Source of the DNA: Brucella pseudintermedia
Lineage (GTDB): Bacteria > Pseudomonadota > Alphaproteobacteria > Rhizobiales > Rhizobiaceae
Length of the DNA: 64,000 nt
Reading direction: 5' to 3'
Assembly: GCF_008932435.1 (NCBI RefSeq)
Contig: NZ_WBWE01000006.1
Location: 124,001-188,000 of the forward strand
Shown here piece by piece: positions 2,036 to 27,494 of the stretch. Position numbers and translations under genes: made by a program. Under the pieces are notes generated by a model. It worked only from the letters and a program-made list of their open reading frames with translations. It made no database searches and was not told where the DNA came from. Each line of letters begins with the position of its first letter. The first letter of the stretch is position 1.

Positions 2036-2136
2036 CGGTTTCTTCCCTTTTTTAAGCCTGCTACCTCAGGGTACGGGAAGAAAAACTGCAGGACGAAGAC
2101 GGCAAGCCGTCCAGCCAAGCATGATTCCAACCTCGT

Positions 2137-2278
2137 TCTCTCTCATCCGGACTATGACCGTCGGCTTCGGAGTTGCACCGAATCTGCTGACCCTGACACG
2201 TTTTTCATGTCAGGCGCTCGCGGGCTTCGGGTGTTTCACCCGTTACCGCCGGTGGGGAATTTCACCCCGCCCTGAGAA
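2137..2278 (-). promoter_or_regulatory. FMN riboswitch (RFN element)
   Basis: Read on the minus strand, the segment carries the conserved RFN blocks in order: CAGGGCGGGGTGAAATTCCC, ACCGGCGGTAA, AGCCCGCGAGC, GGTCAGCAGATTCGGTG, TCCGAAGCCGACGGT and AGTCCGGATGAGAGA. A closing P1 helix forms from TCTCAGGG and its partner TGAGAGA. It lies between the promoter region and ribN on the same strand, so FMN binding should reduce riboflavin-transporter expression by termination or by blocking initiation. The aptamer itself is read directly from the sequence; the repression mode is inferred. Confidence 0.96.
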
Positions 2279-2523
2279 CTGGATATTTCTTTTGCACCGG
2301 ATGGCATGAAGTTGCATCCGAGGCTGGCAATAAATAGGCCCCGTTTTTTCGCAAGGCAAGATACTCACTGCTCGTGCGGCAATGATGCGCCCTGATGCCT
2401 CTTGCTGCGCCCTCGAGTGCCATGCCATCGGAAAAGCATGGACGTATCGGCAACTCTCTTCTAGAAATCCGTAACGGGGTTGACCGGGAGAGGGGTCGGC
2501 TCCGCATGGTTCTGGGAGGAATG

Positions 2524-18347: not shown

Positions 18348-18977
18348 ATGAGCGCAAGCATTTCGACCGCCGCTCCGTTCACGGGCGGAAACGAGCACCC
18401 CGCGCATGAGGACCATCACGATGCAGGGTCGACCACGCTGGTCGGCTTCTGGATCTACCTGATGAGCGACTGCGTCCTCTTCTCGGGGCTGTTTGCAACC
18501 TACGCCGTTCTGGCACACCAGTTCGCGGGCGGCCCGACCGGCCGTGAACTGTTCGACCTGAACTTCGTTCTGATCGAAACCATGCTGCTGCTGGTGTCGT
18601 CGCTGACCTATGGTCTGGCCACGCTTTCGATGTTCAAGAAGAACCGCGCTGGCCTTCTGTTCTGGCTGGGCGTGACCTTCCTGCTCGGCGCCGCCTTCCT
18701 CGCGATGGAAGTCTATGAGTTCAATCACCTGATCCATGAAGGTGCCGGACCGGGACGCAGCGCGTTCCTCTCCGCCTTCTTCGCGCTGGTGGGAACCCAC
18801 GGTCTGCACATCACGTCCGGCCTCATCTGGATCCTGGTGCTTTCCGCCCAGCTTCTGCGTGACGGCCTGACCGAAAAGAACCAGACGCGCGTGATGTGCC
18901 TCAGCCTCTTCTGGCACTTCCTGGACATCATCTGGATCGGCGTCTTTACTCTTGTCTATCTGCTGGGTGTACTGTGA
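18348..18977 (+). CDS. cyoC: Cytochrome o ubiquinol oxidase subunit III
   Basis: The 209-residue protein has five membrane segments and family sequence such as [20 protein letters not shown] and [15 protein letters not shown]. It begins 5 bases after cyoB with AGGAGG upstream, and its stop codon overlaps the cyoD start. It is a structural subunit of the quinol oxidase. Confidence 0.95.
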
Positions 18978-19345
18978 TGAGCTCTGCACACGAAACACAT
19001 GACCACGGCGCAAGCCACGGCAGCCTGAAGTCTTATCTGATCGGCTTCGTGCTGGCGGTTGTCCTCACCGTCGTTCCCTTCATGCTCGCCATGAACGGCT
19101 ACTTCACGCCGGCCACCACCGCCGCCATCGTGCTCGGTATCGCCGTCGTCCAGATCCTGGTGCATCTGGTTTACTTCCTGCACCTCGATCCGAAGTCGGA
19201 AGGCGGCTGGAACATTCTGGCGCTCATCTTCACGGTCATCATCCTGGCTATCGTGCTTGCCGGCTCCATCTGGGTCATGCATCACCTCGATACCAATATG
19301 ATGCCGATGTACATGTCACCGGAAGACGTGCGCAACCTGCCATAA
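18977..19345 (+). CDS. cyoD: Cytochrome o ubiquinol oxidase subunit IV
   Basis: The 122-residue protein has three membrane helices and the family motif QILVHLVYFLHLDPKSEGGWN. The ATG overlaps the cyoC stop (TGATGA context), so translation is coupled. It is the last cyo gene here: no cyoE (heme O synthase) follows. The gene is followed by two or three RNA hairpins and a terminator. Confidence 0.95.
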   Translation: MSSAHETHDHGASHGSLKSYLIGFVLAVVLTVVPFMLAMNGYFTPATTAAIVLGIAVVQILVHLVYFLHLDPKSEGGWNILALIFTVIILAIVLAGSIWVMHHLDTNMMPMYMSPEDVRNLP

Positions 19346-19357
19346 GCTCCGCCAAGG

Positions 19358-19502
19358 GCATTCCCTGCATCGCAACGCCTGCGGGGAATGCTTCCATGCG
19401 CTGCGCGAAACAAGTGGCCTGACGGCCCGTGATCGCGGCTTTATCCTCCCTCTCTCCCCCCAAAGCCGCGTGGCGCCCCGGTTCATTCCGGGGCGCCTTT
19501 CG
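19358..19502 (+). ncRNA. 3' UTR hairpin RNA with anti-Shine-Dalgarno loop after cyoD
   Basis: Three stems lie in a row. GCATTCCC/GGGAATGC (19358-19391) is first. CGCGGCTTT/AAAGCCGCG (19434-19442 and 19462-19470) is a perfect 9-bp stem with the pyrimidine-only loop ATCCTCCCTCTCTCCCCCC after the first A. GGCGCCCCGG/CCGGGGCGCC (19472-19497) is a perfect 10-bp stem followed by TTTCGTTT, a Rho-independent terminator. The CCUCC in the exposed loop is complementary to Shine-Dalgarno sequences, the feature that defines alphaproteobacterial cuckoo/alpha-r14/CcsR small RNAs. It could be a stable 3' UTR fragment of the cyo mRNA. Structures are seen directly; a small RNA role is inferred. Confidence 0.55.
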
Positions 19503-19503
19503 T

Positions 19504-19745
19504 TTGCGGGTTGAGTAGCAGAATTCACACCTCTTAGACTCAAGTAAAATTTGCGTAAAATTGATATTACTTTCCGTAAGGAAAAGTTGATGGGGAAATT
19601 ATATAAGTGTAGTAAAGTATAATATGCGTCATTAATTTACCATTATTGAGGTATAGGTTTGCATATTGACCTATATTGGGTTAGTATCAATTTTGATTGA
19701 TACTCTATTGCGTCTCTGTGTACTCGCAAATATGGAGTAGATGTG
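19504..19745 (+). promoter_or_regulatory. AT-rich control region with two inverted repeats
   Basis: This stretch is strikingly AT-rich compared with its neighbours. It contains TATAGGT/ACCTATA (19652-19675, 10-nt spacer) and AGTATCAA/TTGATACT (19683-19704, 6-nt spacer), about 70 and 42 bases upstream of the SH3b gene. Two phased palindromes before a secreted-protein gene suggest binding sites for a dimeric regulator, but no such regulator is identified. A separate promoter cannot be assigned with confidence. Confidence 0.5.
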
Positions 19746-20486
19746 ATGCCATTATTTAAGAGATTGCTTAATAATAATCGTTTTATCGGTGTCGCTGTTG
19801 CGGCTGTAGTTCTGATCGCGCCGGAGGTTGCTTCCGCGGCCACGGCCTATGTCTCGGCTGCGGTCAATATTCGATCGGGGCCGGGGGCCAACTATGCCCG
19901 GCTTGCCGCACTTCCCGCCGGTGCCTCCGTCAATGCCGGTTCCTGCCGCAACGGCTGGTGCCAGATTTATAACGGCAACAGCGTCGGCTTTGTGTCCGCG
20001 CGCTATCTCCGCTTCGGTTCCTACCAAGGTCAGGCCTATCCCGCGCCGTCCTCGACGACCGTCATCGTCGATAATGGCTACTCTGACGGCTGGGCGCCGG
20101 GCTTTGGCCTCGGTCTCGGTCTCGGCTGGGCAACCGGCGGCTATTGGGATCCCGGTTGGGGCTATGGCTGGGGCGTCGGCCCTGCGTGGCGGACCGGGCC
20201 GGCTTACCATTATGGGTGGGCGGCTCCGGTAAGCCCGCCCCACTTCAATGGGGGCGGCTTCAGCCAGCCCGCATTCAATACGCCGGCATTCAGCAGGCCT
20301 GCATTCAATACGCCCGCATTCCGCAGACCTGCATTCAATACGCCCGCATTCAGCAGGCCTGCATTCAACACGCCTGCGTTCAGCAGACCTGCGTTCAACA
20401 CGCCCGCGTTCAGCAGACCTGCATTTAATCCCGGTTTCGGCGGCGGTCATTTCGGCAATATGCGCCCGATCCATTCCGGTCGCTGA
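19746..20486 (+). CDS. Secreted SH3b-domain protein with decapeptide repeats
   Basis: The 246-residue protein starts with a signal peptide (hydrophobic FIGVAVAAVVLIAP, cleavage near VASA-A). A bacterial SH3 domain follows at about 34-95 (VNIRSGPGANYARLAALPAG, WCQIYNGNSVGFVSARYL), a fold that often binds peptidoglycan. Then comes a Gly/Trp/Tyr-rich linker, and at about 175-227 five copies of a ten-residue repeat of the form PAFNTPAFSR. The first codons are AT-rich like the upstream region, whereas the repeat region is GC-rich. The ATG at 19746 was chosen over a GTG at 19743. Likely an exported envelope protein; the role of the repeats is unknown. Confidence 0.8.
   Translation: MPLFKRLLNNNRFIGVAVAAVVLIAPEVASAATAYVSAAVNIRSGPGANYARLAALPAGASVNAGSCRNGWCQIYNGNSVGFVSARYLRFGSYQGQAYPAPSSTTVIVDNGYSDGWAPGFGLGLGLGWATGGYWDPGWGYGWGVGPAWRTGPAYHYGWAAPVSPPHFNGGGFSQPAFNTPAFSRPAFNTPAFRRPAFNTPAFSRPAFNTPAFSRPAFNTPAFSRPAFNPGFGGGHFGNMRPIHSGR
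20268..20426 (+). repeat. Coding tandem repeat, five 30-bp units
   Basis: Five consecutive 30-base units, each reading roughly CCTGCATTCAATACGCCCGC then ATTCAGCAGG, plus a partial sixth, encode the decapeptide repeats. Units differ at a few third-codon positions and one Ser-to-Arg change, so the array has aged but remains in frame. Unit number can change without frameshift. Confidence 0.9.
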
Positions 20487-20499
20487 TAGCCGGAACATT

Positions 20500-20580
20500 T
20501 CGTCAGGTCATCCTCCTCCCTCCTCCCGTGACCTGATGGACGGCCCGCCGAGACCCTTCCGGCGGGCCGTGCCTTTTTGG
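20500..20580 (+). ncRNA. Cuckoo-like small RNA candidate with tandem CCUCCUCCC loop
   Basis: TCAGGTCA and TGACCTGA form a perfect 8-bp stem (20503-20510, 20529-20536) closing the loop TCCTCCTCCCTCCTCCCG. This loop holds two overlapping CCUCCUCCC motifs, the exact anti-Shine-Dalgarno signature of alphaproteobacterial cuckoo RNAs (alpha-r14, CcsR). Immediately after comes CGGCCCGCCG/CGGCGGGCCG (20541-20569), a perfect 10-bp stem, then TGCCTTTTT, a Rho-independent terminator. It lies 14 bases after the SH3b gene on the same strand and may be processed from that mRNA. Family members usually have two such loops; here one loop has a doubled motif. Confidence 0.7.
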
Positions 20581-20808
20581 AATTTTCGATAATCATCAGA
20601 AAATGCATGGGCGCGGCGGGCTCAACCTGCGCGAGCGTCCACGAGACTGTGGTAACGTTAATACTCCGTTGACTGAAATGGTCCATATCTAGCGTTGTCG
20701 CTTGGAGTTCCGTTCTCCCCATGGTAATCCCTGAATCGTCCTGGGCTGGGGATGACGATCGGGACGCTGCCAGGCGACCGCATAGACAGGAACCGGACAG
20801 TAAAGCGT

Positions 20809-22770
20809 ATGACTTGGAGTAGCAGGACGATACAGGGAAAGAGCATTGCCATGCTTTTGCTGGCGGCGCATTTTTCCTCGCTCGCGGTGTCGCCTGCGCT
20901 GGCATTCGAGCTGTTCGGAATCCGCCTGTGGGGCGAGGACAAGAAGGAAGACCCGGATATCATCGATCCGAAGACCTATACGGTCGAGGTCACGACCACG
21001 GGCGACCGCAAGAATGCGGACGGCACCGAAGCCGATCTGAAATCCACCATTGAAGGCGCTTCGGGCCTCGTTACCGATCAGGAAAAACCCGCTTCGGGTT
21101 CCGCCGGACTGCTGGCCAAGGCGCGTGGGGATTATCGCCGCATTCTCGCCGCCCTCTACGGCGAGGGCCGTTATGGGGGCACCATATCGATCAAGGTCGA
21201 CGGGCGCGAGGCCAACGACATTCCGCCGGACGCGGACATACCCGACAATGCCAAGATCGCGATCACCGTCGATCCCGGCCCGCAATTCCTGTTTTCCCGC
21301 ACCGCGATTTCCAATATCGCGCCGCCGCCGGTCGACAAGCGCGATCACGTGCAGTCGCCCGAAGACGCCGGTTTCGCCCAGGGGCAGGTGGCGCGTTCGG
21401 GCACGGTCATCAAGGCCGAGCGCCTGGCCGTCGAGGCGTGGCGCCAGCAGGGTTACGCCAAGGCCCGCGTGACCGGCGAGGACATCGTGGCCGATCATGC
21501 CGACAACCGGGTTTCCGCCGATATATCGCTTGATCCGGGGCAGAAGGCGCATTACGGCCCGGTCAGCGTCGTCGGGACGGCGCGCATGGACCCGCAATTC
21601 GTGGCCTGGATGACGGGCCTGAAAGAGGGCCAGGAATATGACCCGGACGACATTGAGAAAGCCAAGAAGCGCCTTGGCCGCATGGAAGTGTTCCGGGCGA
21701 TGAGCTTTGAGGAAGCCGAGAAGATCGAGCCGGACGGCAGCCTGCCGATGACGCTTAACGTGCAGGAGCGAAAACCCCGTCGATTCGGCTTCGGCGCCGA
21801 ATATTCGACCATCGACGGGTTTGGCGTCACGGGCTACTGGATGCACCGCAACCTCTTCGGGCGCGGCGAACGCCTGCGCTTCGATGCCAAGGTCAGCGGC
21901 ATTGGCGGCACGCAGGACAATTCCTTCGATCCGAAGAATTACACCTATCTCCTTGGCACCACGTTCACCAAGCCGGGTGTCTATACGCCGGATACGGATT
22001 TTGTAGCCTCGCTCGACGCCAAGCGCGAGGTGCTGGACGCCTATACCGAAACCTCGGTCAATGCGAAAACCGGCTTCACGCAGATATTCAGCGACGAACT
22101 GTCGGGCGCGCTCTATGCCAAGGCGAGCCATGGCCGCTTCAACGACGACGTGTTCGGTGACCGCACTTTCACCACCGCGGGTCTTGAGGGCAATCTCCTC
22201 TATGACAGCCGCAACAACAAGCCGGACCCGAGTTCGGGCATCTATCTGGAAGGCAATATCCAGCCCTTCTATGAATTCCAGTACGGCAATTTCGCCACCC
22301 GTTTCACCGCCGAAGGCCGCACCTATTATGGTTTCGGCGAGAAGGACCGGGTAATTCTCGCGGGCCGCCTCAAGGTCGGTTCCATTGTCGGCGCGTCCAT
22401 CGAGGACCTGCCGCCGAGCCAGCTTTTCCTCGCAGGCGGCGGCGGCTCGGTTCGCGGTTACGGCTATCGCAATATCGGCGTCAGCGCGGGCAATGGCGAG
22501 ATCGTCGGCGGGCGCTCGCTTGTCGAGGCCAATGGCGAAGTGCGCACCCGCATTACCGATTCCATCGGCGCGGTGGCATTCGTCGATGCCGGTTATGTCG
22601 GCGAAAAATCATTCCCCGATTTCTCGGAACAGATGCGCGTCGGCGTCGGTGGCGGTCTGCGCTACCTGACCGGCCTCGGGCCGATCCGCCTTGATGTCGC
22701 CGTTCCGCTCAACCGCCGCTCGGGCGATCCGAGCTATGGCTTGTACGTAGGTATAGGACAGGCGTTTTGA
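20809..22770 (+). CDS. tamA: TamA-like outer membrane assembly protein (BamA/Omp85 family)
   Basis: The protein, about 653 residues, has a signal region ending near SPALA-FELFG and POTRA-like repeats over about 50-330. A C-terminal beta-barrel ends in YGLYVGIGQAF with the terminal phenylalanine typical of outer membrane proteins. FLAGGGGSVRGYGYRNIG is the Omp85 signature (VRGY) in the barrel. TamA with TamB helps assemble outer membrane proteins or move lipids to the outer membrane. The true start is uncertain: 20809 and 20851 are both plausible. The stop overlaps the tamB start. Confidence 0.9.
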   Translation: MTWSSRTIQGKSIAMLLLAAHFSSLAVSPALAFELFGIRLWGEDKKEDPDIIDPKTYTVEVTTTGDRKNADGTEADLKSTIEGASGLVTDQEKPASGSAGLLAKARGDYRRILAALYGEGRYGGTISIKVDGREANDIPPDADIPDNAKIAITVDPGPQFLFSRTAISNIAPPPVDKRDHVQSPEDAGFAQGQVARSGTVIKAERLAVEAWRQQGYAKARVTGEDIVADHADNRVSADISLDPGQKAHYGPVSVVGTARMDPQFVAWMTGLKEGQEYDPDDIEKAKKRLGRMEVFRAMSFEEAEKIEPDGSLPMTLNVQERKPRRFGFGAEYSTIDGFGVTGYWMHRNLFGRGERLRFDAKVSGIGGTQDNSFDPKNYTYLLGTTFTKPGVYTPDTDFVASLDAKREVLDAYTETSVNAKTGFTQIFSDELSGALYAKASHGRFNDDVFGDRTFTTAGLEGNLLYDSRNNKPDPSSGIYLEGNIQPFYEFQYGNFATRFTAEGRTYYGFGEKDRVILAGRLKVGSIVGASIEDLPPSQLFLAGGGGSVRGYGYRNIGVSAGNGEIVGGRSLVEANGEVRTRITDSIGAVAFVDAGYVGEKSFPDFSEQMRVGVGGGLRYLTGLGPIRLDVAVPLNRRSGDPSYGLYVGIGQAF

Positions 22771-25700
22771 CCAGATTTCTCGCAATCATCGCCTTCATCG
22801 CCTTCGCCGTTACGGCAGTCATCTTCGGCTGGCCGGAGCGGGAGGCGCCGGTGCTGGCCCCAGCTCAGGCTAATGCGCAGGCGCAACAGCCGGACAGCGC
22901 GCAGCAGGCAGCGCCTGAGGAAGAGAAATCCTATTTCCTGTCCTTCGTGGAAAGCCAGCTTTCCGCGCCCAACCGCCGCATCTCCATTTCCGGCATCAGC
23001 GGCGTTCTGTCTTCGGAAGCAACGGTCGGTTCGATCACCATCGCCGACCGCGAAGGGGTGTGGCTGCGCATCGAGAATGCCAAGCTGAACTGGAGCCGCA
23101 CCGCGCTTCTGGTCGGGCGTCTCAGCATCCAGTCGCTGGCCGCCGAGCGCATCGACTTCATTCGCAAGCCATTGCCGGACAACAGCCTGCCGTCACCGGA
23201 ATCGTCCAGTTTCAGCCTGCCGGAACTGCCGATATCGATCAATCTCGACCGGCTTGCCATAGCGCGCCTGCATTTCGGGCCTGATATTTTCGGTCTCGAA
23301 TCGGAAGTGTCGGCCAATGGCCGCCTGTCGCTTGCCGATGGCTCGCTGGATTCCAGTTTCGACATCAAGCGCCTCGACGGTCCGGGCGGCACTTTCGCGC
23401 TTCGCGCGGCCTATGCCAATGCCGACCAGAAGGTCGATCTCGACCTGAAAGTCTCCGAACCGGCCAATGGCATCGTCGCCAACCTGTTGAACATCGATGG
23501 CCGTCCCCCTGTCGATCTCACCCTGACGGGTGCCGGTCCGCTCGACGGGTTGAAAGTCGATCTGGCGCTCGACACCAATGGCAGCCGCACGCTGACGGGT
23601 GAATTTACGCTCAACCGGCAAGGTCAGGCCCCCGATGGCGGCCGCGTTTTCTCCGCCCGCTTCAATGGCCCGATCGCGGTGCTGGTGCCGCCGGTCTTCC
23701 GTGATTTCTTCGGTGCCGAAACGGTTCTCTCCGCCGATGGCTTCCTCAAGGATGCGGGCGGTTTCCGCCTCGACGATCTGGCGCTGAACAGCGCCGCCTT
23801 GAAGCTCAAGGCTTCCGCCGAAACCGGCAATGACCGCTTCCTGAACAGGCTGCGCGTTGACGCTTCCATTGCCGATGAGAGCAAGGGCCGCGTTCTCCTG
23901 CCGGTCAAGGGCGCCGAAACCTATATCGACAACGCAAAATTTCAGATCGCCTACGGTGATCGCCCGACCAATGACTGGACGGGCACGCTTGCCGTTGCCG
24001 GTCTCAAGAATGCAACGATTTCTGCGCGGAGCATCGCGCTCGACATGGGCGGCGTTGCCGAAAATCTGGATGACGCCGCCAATCGCCATATCTCCTTCAA
24101 GGTCAATGGCGGGGTGGACGGCATTTCGGCGGAACGCGCCGAAATCGCCGAGGCGCTCGGAAACAGGATAGCGCTCGCCGTCGACGGCGCTTGGCGCGCC
24201 GGCTCGCCGGTCGAGCTTGCGCAGGCCAATATTTCCGGCAATGGCCTCAGCCTCGATCTCAAGGGCAATATTGACGACTTCGCCTTCAATGGCGACATCG
24301 CCGCCAAGGTGGCAAGCCTCGCGCCTTTCGGCGCTCTGGCTGGCCGTGACCTCGCGGGCAGCATCGATGTCAACGCGAAGGGCATCGTGCGCCCGATCAG
24401 CGGCGCTTTCCAGCTTGACCTCAATGGCACGGCGCAGAACATGCGCACCGGCACTGAAGCCGTGGATCGCATTCTCGACGGCGCGGTTACGCTGGGCGGC
24501 GCGCTTGGCCGCAGCAGCGAAGGATTTTCAGCGCGTGATTTCCGCATCGGCAACGAGTTGAGCGAAATCACCGCAAACGGTTCCTTTGCGTCCGACAAGG
24601 CCAATTTCGATTTCGGCGTCATGCTGTCCGATCTCAAGCTTCTTTCCGATCAGGCATCGGGCCGCATGACGGTCAAGGGCAGCGCGCGCGGCGACGACAA
24701 GCTGATCGCGCTGGCACTCCGCGCCGATGCGCCGCAAGGCACGCTGGCAGGACGCAAGCTTTCCGAAGGCGGTCTCGACTTCAACGCCATGCTTGACGGC
24801 AATGCAACGACAGGCGCTGCCCTTTCCGGCAAGCTTGCCGGCAGCGCCTTCCTCAATGGCCAGCGCATCGATCTGGGAACCGTGATCGATATCGTCAATG
24901 ACGAGAAGCGCCTGACCGATCTCGTCTTCAATGCGGGCGGTGCGCATCTTTCCGGCAATGTGACCCAGAGCGCGAAGGGCCTTTTCACCGGCGCGCTGAA
25001 ACTGGATGCGCCCGATATTTCTACCGCCGCAGCCCTGGCGCTTGCCGAAGCGACCGGTGCCGCCAATGCCGATATCACGCTGGACGCCAGCGACGGTCGC
25101 CAGAATGCATCGGTCACCGCAAACGCCAAGGGCATCAAGGTCAATGGCAACCGCATCACCTCGGCGGATATTGCCCTGACGGCAAGGGATCTGTTCGGTG
25201 TGCCGGTGGTCGACGGCAATGCCGCGGCGCGCGACATTCTGGTCGGCACGTTCGGCATCGACAGTTTTGACGCCAAGGCCAATGCGACCGGGTCGAAGAC
25301 CGATTTCACGGCCAATACCAAATTGAAGATCGGCACGGTTGCGAGCGCCGCCGGTTCGCTTGAGCCGAAGGATGGCGGTTTTGAACTGGGTCTCGCCTCG
25401 GCCAATGTGAAGCAGGGGACGCTTAGCGCCAATCTGGCCGCGCCAGCCACCATTTCCATGAAGGGCGAGGAAATCTCCTTCGGGGATATCGTCATCAATA
25501 CGGGCGCGGATGCCAGCGCGGGTCAGGTCAAGGTCAATGGCGTCGTCGATGGCCGTCTCGATCTTTCGGTCGCGCTCTCCAACCTGCCGCTGGCGCTTGC
25601 CAATACGTTCAAGCCGGAACTGGGGCTTGGCGGCACGGTCAACGGCACGGCCCGCATCACCGGCACCAAGGATGCGCCCAATGTCGCCTTCGACATGGCG

Positions 25701-27494
25701 GCGCGCGGCGTGACGGCAGCCGAGCTCAAGAAGCAGGGCATCGCCGCTCTCAATGCCGATGCCAAGGGCACTTCCGCCAATAACCGGCTGAATGTCGATG
25801 CGCATGTCACCGGAGGGGGCGGCATTGATGTCCGCGCCAATGGCGGCGTGCCGCTTGGAAAAGGTGATCTGGCGGTCGATGTCAATCTCGCCAATCTCCC
25901 GCTGACGGCGCTGAACGGTGCGGTCAAGGGGCAGGATCTCGCTGGCAATGTCACCGGCACGGCGCGGGTCACCGGGCCGCTCAACAATCCGGCTGCGACA
26001 TTCAACCTGCGCAGCACCGGCCTTGCGGCCAAGCCGCTGCGCGATAACGGGCTTGCGCCGCTCACCTTACAGGCTGCGGGCAGCTATGCGGCCATGGCCA
26101 TCGACTTTTCGTCGGTGACCGTCGATGGTCCGCGTGGGCTCAATGTCACCGCCAATGGCAAGGTGCCGTTTTCGGGGCAGGGGCTTGGCGTCAATGTCAA
26201 CGGCAGCGTTCCGCTGGCGCTTGCCAACCGCTTCCTGGCTGATCGCGGCGCACAGGCAAACGGCACGCTGACGCTGACGGCCAGCGTTTCGGGCGGCTTC
26301 AACCGTCCGCAATTGCGCGGCATGTTCTCCACCAATGGCGCAACCTTTGTCGATCCGGACACCAATGTCCGCCTGAACAATATCAATGTCATGGGCAGCA
26401 TGGATGGCGAAACCATCACGCTGCGCCAGGTCAATGCCGCGCTTGGCAGCGGTGGAGCGGTTTCTGCCAGCGGCACGATTTCGACCAATGCCGAGGCGAA
26501 TTTCCCGGCCAATATCGAAATCAAGCTGGATCGCGCCCGCTATGCCGACGGCAAGCTGGTGGTGGCGACGGTCAATGGCGGGATCACGATCAATGGGCCG
26601 CTGATGCGCGACCCGCTGATTTCAGGCCGGATCGACGTTGACCGTGCCGAAATCTCGGTGCCGGAAAATCTCGGCGGGGGCGCGGCCTATGTGCCGGTGC
26701 AGCACAAGAATACGCCGAAGAACGTGCAGGTGACGCTGGACCGCGCCAAGGTCGAAACGCGCAAGAGCAAGGTGCCGACGCCAACGTCGCGCCCGACCGT
26801 GCCGCGCCTTGATGTTCTGATCAATGCACCCAACCAGATTTTCGTGCGCGGTCGCGGCCTTGACACGGAACTGGGCGGACGCCTTCGCCTGACCGGGCCG
26901 GTGACCGACATCAAGCCGGTCGGGGCCTTCGACATGATCCGCGGCCGCATCGGCATTCTCGGCCAGCGCATTACCTTCGACGAAGGCCATGTCACGCTGG
27001 TAGGCGATCTCAATCCGCAACTCAACTTCGTTGCCCGTTCCGAAGGCAATGAAATCACCGCAATCGTGACGGTGACGGGCACGGTCGATAATCTCGACAT
27101 CAAGTTCTCCTCGACGCCGGAACTGCCGCAGGATGAAGTGCTGGCGCAGCTGATCTTCAAGCGCTCCATCGGCGAATTGTCGGCCTTCCAGATCGCGCAG
27201 CTTGCCGCCGCGGCGGCAGAACTTGCGGGCGGTTCCAACAACTCGCTGATGAACAAGCTGCGCGCCGGGACAGGTCTCGATGACCTCGATGTGGTGACGG
27301 ACGACAAGGGCCAGACGGCGGTTCGTGCCGGACGCTATATCCGCGATAATATCTATCTTGGCGTGGAAGCAGGGTCGGGCGGCACGACGAAAGGCACTGT
27401 CAATCTCGACATTACCCGCAATCTGAAAGCCAAGGGCGCATTGGGTGCGGAAGGCGACTCCAGCGGCGGCATTTTCTACGAAAAAGATTATTGA
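22767..27494 (+). CDS. tamB: TamB-like translocation/assembly module protein (DUF490)
   Basis: The 1575-residue protein has one N-terminal membrane anchor (FLAIIAFIAFAVTAVIFGW). A very long beta-rich chain of repeated amphipathic strands follows, of the kind forming a hydrophobic groove across the periplasm. The C-terminal DUF490 region contains LPQDEVLAQLIFKRSIGELS and ends FYEKDY. A TTG start overlaps the tamA stop, and AGGACAGG provides a weak ribosome binding site. Together with TamA it should span inner and outer membranes. Confidence 0.92.
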   Translation: MTRFLAIIAFIAFAVTAVIFGWPEREAPVLAPAQANAQAQQPDSAQQAAPEEEKSYFLSFVESQLSAPNRRISISGISGVLSSEATVGSITIADREGVWLRIENAKLNWSRTALLVGRLSIQSLAAERIDFIRKPLPDNSLPSPESSSFSLPELPISINLDRLAIARLHFGPDIFGLESEVSANGRLSLADGSLDSSFDIKRLDGPGGTFALRAAYANADQKVDLDLKVSEPANGIVANLLNIDGRPPVDLTLTGAGPLDGLKVDLALDTNGSRTLTGEFTLNRQGQAPDGGRVFSARFNGPIAVLVPPVFRDFFGAETVLSADGFLKDAGGFRLDDLALNSAALKLKASAETGNDRFLNRLRVDASIADESKGRVLLPVKGAETYIDNAKFQIAYGDRPTNDWTGTLAVAGLKNATISARSIALDMGGVAENLDDAANRHISFKVNGGVDGISAERAEIAEALGNRIALAVDGAWRAGSPVELAQANISGNGLSLDLKGNIDDFAFNGDIAAKVASLAPFGALAGRDLAGSIDVNAKGIVRPISGAFQLDLNGTAQNMRTGTEAVDRILDGAVTLGGALGRSSEGFSARDFRIGNELSEITANGSFASDKANFDFGVMLSDLKLLSDQASGRMTVKGSARGDDKLIALALRADAPQGTLAGRKLSEGGLDFNAMLDGNATTGAALSGKLAGSAFLNGQRIDLGTVIDIVNDEKRLTDLVFNAGGAHLSGNVTQSAKGLFTGALKLDAPDISTAAALALAEATGAANADITLDASDGRQNASVTANAKGIKVNGNRITSADIALTARDLFGVPVVDGNAAARDILVGTFGIDSFDAKANATGSKTDFTANTKLKIGTVASAAGSLEPKDGGFELGLASANVKQGTLSANLAAPATISMKGEEISFGDIVINTGADASAGQVKVNGVVDGRLDLSVALSNLPLALANTFKPELGLGGTVNGTARITGTKDAPNVAFDMAARGVTAAELKKQGIAALNADAKGTSANNRLNVDAHVTGGGGIDVRANGGVPLGKGDLAVDVNLANLPLTALNGAVKGQDLAGNVTGTARVTGPLNNPAATFNLRSTGLAAKPLRDNGLAPLTLQAAGSYAAMAIDFSSVTVDGPRGLNVTANGKVPFSGQGLGVNVNGSVPLALANRFLADRGAQANGTLTLTASVSGGFNRPQLRGMFSTNGATFVDPDTNVRLNNINVMGSMDGETITLRQVNAALGSGGAVSASGTISTNAEANFPANIEIKLDRARYADGKLVVATVNGGITINGPLMRDPLISGRIDVDRAEISVPENLGGGAAYVPVQHKNTPKNVQVTLDRAKVETRKSKVPTPTSRPTVPRLDVLINAPNQIFVRGRGLDTELGGRLRLTGPVTDIKPVGAFDMIRGRIGILGQRITFDEGHVTLVGDLNPQLNFVARSEGNEITAIVTVTGTVDNLDIKFSSTPELPQDEVLAQLIFKRSIGELSAFQIAQLAAAAAELAGGSNNSLMNKLRAGTGLDDLDVVTDDKGQTAVRAGRYIRDNIYLGVEAGSGGTTKGTVNLDITRNLKAKGALGAEGDSSGGIFYEKDY

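What the first reader, a model, noticed from the sequence alone, without database searches (positions are those of the whole stretch)
20500..20580. Cuckoo-like small RNA with a doubled CCUCCUCCC loop
A perfect 8-bp stem closes a loop carrying two overlapping anti-Shine-Dalgarno CCUCCUCCC motifs, directly followed by a perfect terminator. Cuckoo/alpha-r14/CcsR RNAs usually carry the motif once per loop in two hairpins. A doubled motif in one loop, attached to an SH3b-repeat gene, looks like a variant layout.
Basis: partly seen in the sequence, partly recalled or inferred. Interest (0 to 1): 0.75.

Follow-up and report, generated by a model that had tools for sequence, protein, structure and literature searches.

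The report
Ribosome-site-mimicking hairpin in gene tail
The messenger-RNA tail of a small envelope gene, probably from a bacterium of the Brucella/Ochrobactrum group, carries a conserved hairpin whose loop copies the ribosome's mRNA-binding sequence; it may be a small regulatory RNA made from the gene's tail, resembling known families without matching them closely enough to be filed as a member.

Summary
In detail: stem 20503-20510/20529-20536, a 16-nt loop of two overlapping CCTCCTCCC, then a terminator hairpin, about 12 nt after the stop codon of an SH3-domain gene, ahead of tamA-tamB. The element is in 27 of 35 genus genomes searched, each time behind the same gene; the other 8 lack a close ortholog. 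The stem is 97% paired with a few two-sided changes. The loop keeps the anti-Shine-Dalgarno core CCUCC in 27 of 27, the full 9-mer in 14, doubled in 3. The doubling is a few nt more than sister loops, not a new layout; 14 of 27 also have CCUCC in the terminator loop. Rfam: ar14 20.8 bits (cut-off 58.8), CcsR1 15.8 (65.3), so not a member by that test; five true ar14 copies lie elsewhere in the genome. Best reading: a 3'UTR-derived anti-SD small RNA, working like CcsR/cuckoo RNAs. A similar pyrimidine-loop hairpin plus terminator, unnoticed before, ends the oxidase operon 1 kb upstream (34 of 35 genomes). No transcript data were available.

The parts
20499..20540 (+). Anti-SD hairpin: 8 Watson-Crick pairs (20503-20510 with 20529-20536) within a 12-pair helix including G-U pairs
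   Evidence: present in 27 of 35 genus genomes
20512..20527 (+). 16-nt loop made of two CCTCCTCCC motifs (20512-20520, 20519-20527) overlapping by 2 nt
   Evidence: doubled in 3 of 27 relatives (window included), core CCTCC in 27 of 27
20540..20578 (+). Terminator hairpin (20540-20570, loop without motif) and T-run 20574-20578
   Evidence: two-sided stem changes at 7 of 11 pairs across relatives; not listed by the consensus scan
19743..20486 (+). Host gene: SH3_3-domain protein, 247 aa, with PAFN-rich C-terminal repeats
   Evidence: ortholog upstream of the element in 27 of 27, recognised by eye from translations
19434..19497 (+). Second, analogous element after the cyoD-type gene: 9-bp hairpin (19434-19470) with pyrimidine loop ATCCTCCCTCTCTCCCCCC, then terminator 19472-19497
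   Evidence: model R2 matches 34 of 35 genus genomes, 33 strongly
18956..19345 (+). cyoD-type oxidase subunit IV gene (end of the oxidase operon)
   Evidence: COX4_pro; ORF list; the name cyo is inferred
20752..22770 (+). tamA-type gene (POTRA, Omp85) downstream; tamB follows at 22767-27494

Best explanation
The element is the 3' end of the SH3-gene mRNA, which acts as or is cut into a small 3'UTR-derived RNA of roughly 70-95 nt: one anti-SD hairpin plus the terminator. The loop, a mimic of the 16S rRNA tail, pairs with strong Shine-Dalgarno sites (GGGAGGA, GGGAGGAGG) of other mRNAs, many for transport proteins, and blocks their translation. It would couple expression of the SH3 envelope gene to lowering of a set of uptake systems, alongside the five ar14 copies of the same genome. 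Shown here: the sequence, the conserved stem and anti-SD core, linkage to the gene, and the existence of complementary SD sites. Inferred: transcription through the element, release by an RNase, pairing and repression.
For: Gene and element occur together: 27 of 27 elements lie behind the gene (23 within 56 nt, 4 at 82-181 nt), and the 8 of 35 genomes without the element have no close ortholog. Motif stem 97.2% paired, two-sided changes at 5 of 10 pairs; slid controls 18-46% for both helices together. Arms 89% and 94% pairwise identical while 30-nt flanks are 28-29% (ungapped). CCUCC in 27 of 27 loops. SD sites GGGAGGA-N4-10-ATG: 99 matches against 6 for the reversed pattern; transport families in 7 of 21 scanned genes (from the first 30 of 99) against 0 of 20 for AAAGGAG sites (from the first 30 of 94), p = 0.009. 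Predicted pairing -15 to -22 kcal/mol with four such SDs, picked by me, against -7.5 with two AAAGGAG SDs. Precedents: CcsR1-4 come from the 3'UTR of ccaF1, a DUF1127 gene, with RNase E and CcaF1 in their maturation (PMC8625941, PMC10253847, passages); in this genome two of five ar14 copies lie behind DUF1127 genes.
Against: No RNA evidence of any kind. The full 9-mer is in only 14 of 27, so the loop tolerates much change. Each two-sided change of the motif stem rests on one sequence, and two of the five end as U-G; the 11-row alignment had none. The SD sites suit any anti-SD RNA, so the target set is not specific to this element. The two gene samples had different length cut-offs; limiting the control to 134 aa or more leaves 0 of 14. 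The near-constant stem is unlike the variable stems reported for ar14 and is not explained by a mechanism that needs the loop alone. The promoter scan found nothing before the hairpin, but nothing before the SH3 gene either (its one site starts at 19746, inside the gene), so it says little.
Confidence: 0.52

Rival explanations
1. Cis-acting 3'-end structure: the hairpin stabilises the SH3 mRNA or is a binding site for an RNA-binding protein or RNase that reads the conserved AUCAGGUC stem and the pyrimidine loop; no trans targets.
For: Stem sequence conserved beyond the need to pair (arms 89-94% identical); loop length and motif vary while staying pyrimidine-rich (71-100%); the oxidase operon ends in an analogous hairpin with a different pyrimidine loop.
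Against: Every loop keeps CCUCC (27 of 27), more specific than a generic pyrimidine loop needs; SD sites complementary to it are abundant.
Confidence: 0.28
2. Ordinary terminator region with an incidental pyrimidine loop; no regulatory role.
For: A terminator is expected here; pyrimidine loops can grow by slippage (the window loop differs from those of relatives by a few nt); shuffled sequence gives such hairpins about as often as real sequence outside the window (0 real, 2 shuffled in 400 kb).
Against: A separate upstream hairpin conserved in 27 genomes with paired changes and flanks at 28-29% identity; outside the genus L317 has an SH3 gene at this place with no R1 match.
Confidence: 0.12
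3. True member of the ar14/cuckoo/CcsR family, diverged by loss of hairpins (a statement about descent; it can hold together with the best explanation).
For: ar14 and CcsR1 are among the three weak Rfam matches on this strand, with Pyrobac-1 between them; ar14 is listed at E up to 10 in 12 of 15 SH3-locus relatives tested, best 37.8 bits; CCUCC in both loops of 14 of 27.
Against: 0 of 15 reach the ar14 cut-off of 58.8 while the five ar14 copies in the same genome score 69-98; own host gene and own constant stem; convergence on an anti-SD loop is easy.
Confidence: 0.25
4. DNA-level palindromic operator rather than an RNA structure.
For: Conserved inverted repeat TCAGGTC/GACCTGA.
Against: Spacing varies (loop 11-18 nt), changes on both sides keep pairing, and it lies between a stop codon and a terminator.
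Confidence: 0.03

Closest known systems
ar14 / cuckoo RNA family (Rfam RF02344; NfeR1, SmelA075, SmelA099)
   Same: Hairpin loops with CCUCCUCCC, terminator at the end, predicted pairing with SD sites of transport mRNAs
   Different: Those have three or four hairpins each with the motif and variable stems (PMC3927594 section 2.7 read; PMC10746234 passages); here one motif hairpin, motif-less terminator loop, near-constant stem, 3'UTR of an SH3 gene, 20.8 bits against a cut-off of 58.8
CcsR1-4 of Rhodobacter sphaeroides (Rfam RF02791) and the CIN1 locus
   Same: Small RNAs with an anti-SD motif in the 3'UTR of a small-protein gene; two hairpins with the core motif as in 14 of 27 relatives here
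   Different: Host gene is DUF1127 (ccaF1) there, SH3 here; 15.8 bits against 65.3
AbcR1/AbcR2
   Same: CU-rich anti-SD seeds acting on ABC-transporter mRNAs (PMC7143759 and PMC9751625, passages)
   Different: Separate genes of 110-121 nt with three stem loops; no match named AbcR or suhB at this locus
BjrC68 (Rfam RF02353), for the oxidase-end element only
   Same: Best weak Rfam match there, 23.9 bits, E = 2.2e-4 in a 201-base search
   Different: Below its cut-off of 39; not followed further

Membership tests
ar14 / cuckoo | Score at or above Rfam RF02344 gathering cut-off (58.8) | tested here: not met
   20.8 bits in the window; 0 of 15 SH3-locus relatives tested (of 27), best 37.8
ar14 / cuckoo | Several adjacent hairpins, each loop with CCUCCUCCC | tested here: not met
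   One motif hairpin; terminator loop AGACCCTTC in the window. Core CCUCC in both loops in 14 of 27 relatives
ar14 / cuckoo | Loop with the anti-SD 9-mer CCUCCUCCC | tested here: met
   Twice in the window; but only 14 of 27 relatives
ar14 / cuckoo | Stem sequences highly variable | tested here: not met
   Arms 89-94% pairwise identical over 27 relatives
CcsR / CIN1 | Score at or above Rfam RF02791 gathering cut-off (65.3) | tested here: not met
   15.8 bits
CcsR / CIN1 | 3'UTR of a DUF1127 (ccaF-type) gene | tested here: not met
   Host gene is SH3_3
CcsR / CIN1 | Processed from the mRNA by RNase E; stress-induced | not testable with these tools
   No RNA data
3'UTR-derived anti-SD small RNA (functional class) | Structured element between stop codon and terminator, conserved with its host gene | tested here: met
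3'UTR-derived anti-SD small RNA (functional class) | Discrete short transcript | not testable with these tools
   No RNA data

The most novel reading that the evidence does not exclude
A genus-specific regulatory design: two neighbouring transcription units (a cytochrome oxidase operon and an SH3 envelope gene) each end in a pyrimidine-loop hairpin plus terminator that becomes an anti-SD small RNA, so that mRNA of respiration and envelope genes represses uptake genes. In the SH3 element the anti-SD content shifts between the two loops in different lineages (full 9-mer in loop 1 for 13 of 13 without a terminator-loop CCUCC, 1 of 14 with it), as if total anti-SD valency were kept. The constant stem would be read by a protein partner, perhaps as CcaF1 acts on CcsR.
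Probability: 0.15. Interest if true: 0.7.

Novelty: new variant of a known kind. Interest (0 to 1): 0.45.

Why it matters
The anti-SD small RNAs met in the papers seen here are ar14 genes such as NfeR1 or CcsR RNAs behind a DUF1127 gene. A conserved one behind an SH3 envelope gene, with a constant stem, would show that 3'UTR anti-SD RNAs arise behind unrelated genes, and gives a natural set of 27 loop variants for asking how much anti-SD sequence is needed and in how many loops. The oxidase-end hairpin suggests a second, more widely kept case that would link respiration with post-transcriptional control.

Tried and rejected
Doubling as a new layout: rejected; 3 of 27, a few nt longer than loops of relatives. 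Filing as ar14 or CcsR: rejected on score and architecture. A genome-wide class of such 3' hairpins: not supported; 0 hairpins with loops of at least 92% pyrimidine in 20 stretches of 20 kb, about 9% of the genome (2 in the shuffled sample). A looser scan (tract of 7 or more pyrimidines with CTCC) found 12 in the window and 36 in the sample, not checked one by one for coding or terminators; it found the ar14 copies as positive control. Model R1 in the family: 4 of 199 genomes at E 0.01, 2 of them outside the genus, which are ar14 (L086) or ar14-like just below cut-off (L087, 54.9); in the order: 1 of 297, the window's own. Both searches scored only 23 and 16 of up to thousands of first-look candidates per genome, so absence there is weak. 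Pairing of the loop with the SH3 gene's own SD: -6.9 kcal/mol, weak. Paralogous SH3 genes of the same genome (L332, L334): no such hairpin seen by eye in the 200 nt after their stops. Reciprocity of the motif between loops: striking in counts, but 1 independent pair on supported branches (2 on all) of a poorly resolved TamA tree (5 of 24 inner branches starred, one bad row, L070), so not significant. Plasmids: 4 Streptomyces records matching 26% of the query. Literature: among the papers listed by the searches (top 3 to 25 of each) I saw none on this 3'UTR by title or abstract start; the cuckoo-family paper (PMC4615179) is not held, so its definition is known to me only through PMC3927594 and recall.

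Full report
WHAT IS THERE. The window holds an oxidase operon ending in a cyoD-type gene (COX3, COX4_pro; the name cyo is inferred), then an SH3-domain gene with a signal-like N-terminus (19743-20486), then tamA- and tamB-type genes. About 12 nt after the SH3 stop codon a helix opens whose core is TCAGGTCA/TGACCTGA (20503-20510, 20529-20536); its 16-nt loop, CCTCCTCCCTCCTCCC, is two overlapping CCTCCTCCC motifs. A GC-rich hairpin (20540-20570) and five T (20574-20578) follow. The 100-nt stretch folds at -44.8 kcal/mol, z -5.5.

WHERE IT COMES FROM. A pattern scan of named genomes, filtered with the covariance model, gave 9 strong hits among 80 loci, titled Brucella (pituitosa, tritici twice, pecoris, daejeonensis, cytisi, oryzae, sp. 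21LCYQ03) or Falsochrobactrum shanghaiense; NCBI places B. pituitosa in the Brucella/Ochrobactrum group. The window most likely belongs there; this is inference.

CONSERVATION. BLAST found the stretch in 12 of 35 genus genomes. A model built from 11 of these (R1) matched 29 of 35 at E 0.1. Inspection shows 27 to be the element behind the SH3 gene (11 were in the model, 16 were not). Of the 27, 26 have E below 2e-5; G020 (L082) has 0.018 and was kept for its fold and its gene. The other two are an ar14 RNA (G007, L084) and a remnant in G004 (L083: 3' arm and terminator beside a different gene). The SH3 stop lies 4-56 nt before the element in 23 and 82-181 nt in 4. The SH3 gene in relatives was recognised by eye from translations; in L065, L070 and L072 it reads in two frames. 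The 8 genomes without the element (G004, G005, G007, G022, G023, G026, G027, G030) have no close SH3 ortholog, only 29-40% identical paralogs (7) or no match (G022, 72% complete); in 6 of them the oxidase-end hairpin is followed by a tamA-type frame with no SH3 gene between. In a genome of another genus, L317, an SH3 gene stands at the same place with no R1 match at E up to 10.

STRUCTURE TEST. On the 27-row alignment (25 distinct rows), made by MAFFT without structure, 97.2% of cells of the motif helix and 98.9% of the terminator helix pair; 5 of 10 and 7 of 11 pairs show two-sided changes; 0 of 500 shuffles reach the observed cells paired, covariation score or either count of two-sided changes (2 of 500 reach the number of pair types); slid versions pair 18-46%. 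Caveats: in the motif helix each two-sided change rests on one sequence and two of the five are U-G; the first 11-row alignment had none in that helix; related rows can beat such shuffles. The arms are 89% and 94% identical, the 30-nt flanks 28-29% ungapped: the stem sequence itself seems constrained.

THE LOOP. Core CCUCC is in 27 of 27, the 9-mer in 14, doubled in 3 (G000, G008, G029). Relatives read CCTCCCCTCCTCCC (L062) or CCTCCCTCCTCCC (L056), so the doubling is two or three nt more. CCUCC is also in the terminator loop of 14 of 27. The 9-mer in loop 1 is present in 13 of 13 without and 1 of 14 with the terminator-loop motif, but a TamA tree gives only 1 to 2 independent contrasts, so this is a lead only.

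A SECOND ELEMENT. Searching the named loci with R1 gave weak second hits (24-36 bits) about 1 kb upstream in 6 of the 9. They are a hairpin with a loop like ATCCTCCCTCTCTCCCCCC and a terminator; in the window it follows the cyoD-type gene (19434-19497). A model of it (R2, from 7 sequences) matches 34 of 35 genus genomes, 33 at E below 1e-12 and one (G028) at 0.006; G010 has none. In the family it matches 8 of 199, 4 outside the genus; of those four loci one (L317) is after cyoD and three, by eye, are elsewhere. Rfam gives only sub-threshold hits (BjrC68 23.9 of 39; suhB/mmgR 16.9 of 41). A scan for loops of at least 92% pyrimidine finds just these two in the window and none in 400 kb sampled from the same genome, with 2 in the shuffled sample.

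RELATION TO KNOWN FAMILIES. Rfam at gathering scores finds nothing here; permissively, ar14 20.8 (58.8), Pyrobac-1 17.2 (40) and CcsR1 15.8 (65.3) on this strand, and RcsR1 23.5 (60) on the other. Of 15 SH3-locus relatives tested (of 27), ar14 is listed in 12, best 37.8, none over the cut-off. The same genome holds five ar14 copies at 69-98 bits, two of them behind 48-aa DUF1127 genes (the other three showed no such frame to a simple pattern), the arrangement reported for CcsR-like RNAs (PMC10253847, passages). So the element looks like an anti-SD RNA of this kind but is not shown to be a member.

LIKELY TARGETS. GGGAGGA-N4-10-ATG has 99 matches against 6 for the reversed pattern (at least two of the 99 are antisense to an ar14 copy or to this element, and a few overlap). 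Of the first 30, 21 distinct genes of 134 aa or more were scanned; the rest gave short frames, a repeat or no printed frame. 7 of 21 hit transport families (periplasmic binding, TctC, permease, MFS). Of the first 30 of 94 AAAGGAG sites, 20 genes of 60 aa or more were scanned (2 more were left out) and 0 did (p 0.009). Of five GGGAGGAGG sites near an ATG looked at separately, three open genes, all of transport families; two open only short frames. These sites serve ar14 equally.

MECHANISM. Most likely the SH3 mRNA is cut, or ends, so as to leave a short RNA whose loop blocks strong SDs. Transcription, cutting and blocking are inferred. Precedent for repression of transport mRNAs by NfeR1 through its anti-SD motifs: PMC7143759, passages.

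Noticed in passing
window 19434-19497: Pyrimidine-loop hairpin plus terminator closing the oxidase operon, more widely conserved (34 of 35 genus genomes) than the element given; weak BjrC68 resemblance.
   Followed up: partly
window 20648-20699: Block TGGTAACGTTAATACTCC(G/A)TTGACTGAAATGGTCCATATCTAGCGTTG upstream of tamA, seen by eye in several loci; may be the tamA promoter region.
   Followed up: no
window 19684-19703: Perfect inverted repeat GTATCAAT-TTTG-ATTGATAC in the AT-rich region before the SH3 gene; possible operator.
   Followed up: no
L046, L047: Two of the genome's five ar14 RNAs lie behind 48-aa DUF1127 genes (CIN1-like arrangement).
   Followed up: partly
L083 (G004) around 1500-1579: Element remnant: 3' arm and terminator kept, 5' arm not pairing, next to a different gene (translation resembles dihydrodipicolinate synthase, by eye) instead of the SH3 gene.
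   Followed up: partly
L086 1305-1739: Three tandem ar14 RNAs at 157-nt spacing in another genus of the family.
   Followed up: no
L008/L009 near 1500: Hairpin pairing an SD-like GGGAGGAGG with an anti-SD CCTCCTCCC in the same molecule.
   Followed up: no
window 20265-20430: PAFN-type repeats near the end of the SH3 gene in the window's species, shorter or different in relatives by eye.
   Followed up: no
window 2131-2283: FMN riboswitch on the minus strand (115.1 bits).
   Followed up: no
L035 after the terminator (about 1660-1760): A palindromic repeat of a kind common in this genus (label from memory) sits directly behind the terminator in G033.
   Followed up: no
L065, L070, L072: The SH3 gene behind which the element lies reads in two frames in these three relatives; decay or sequencing error not distinguished.
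   Followed up: no
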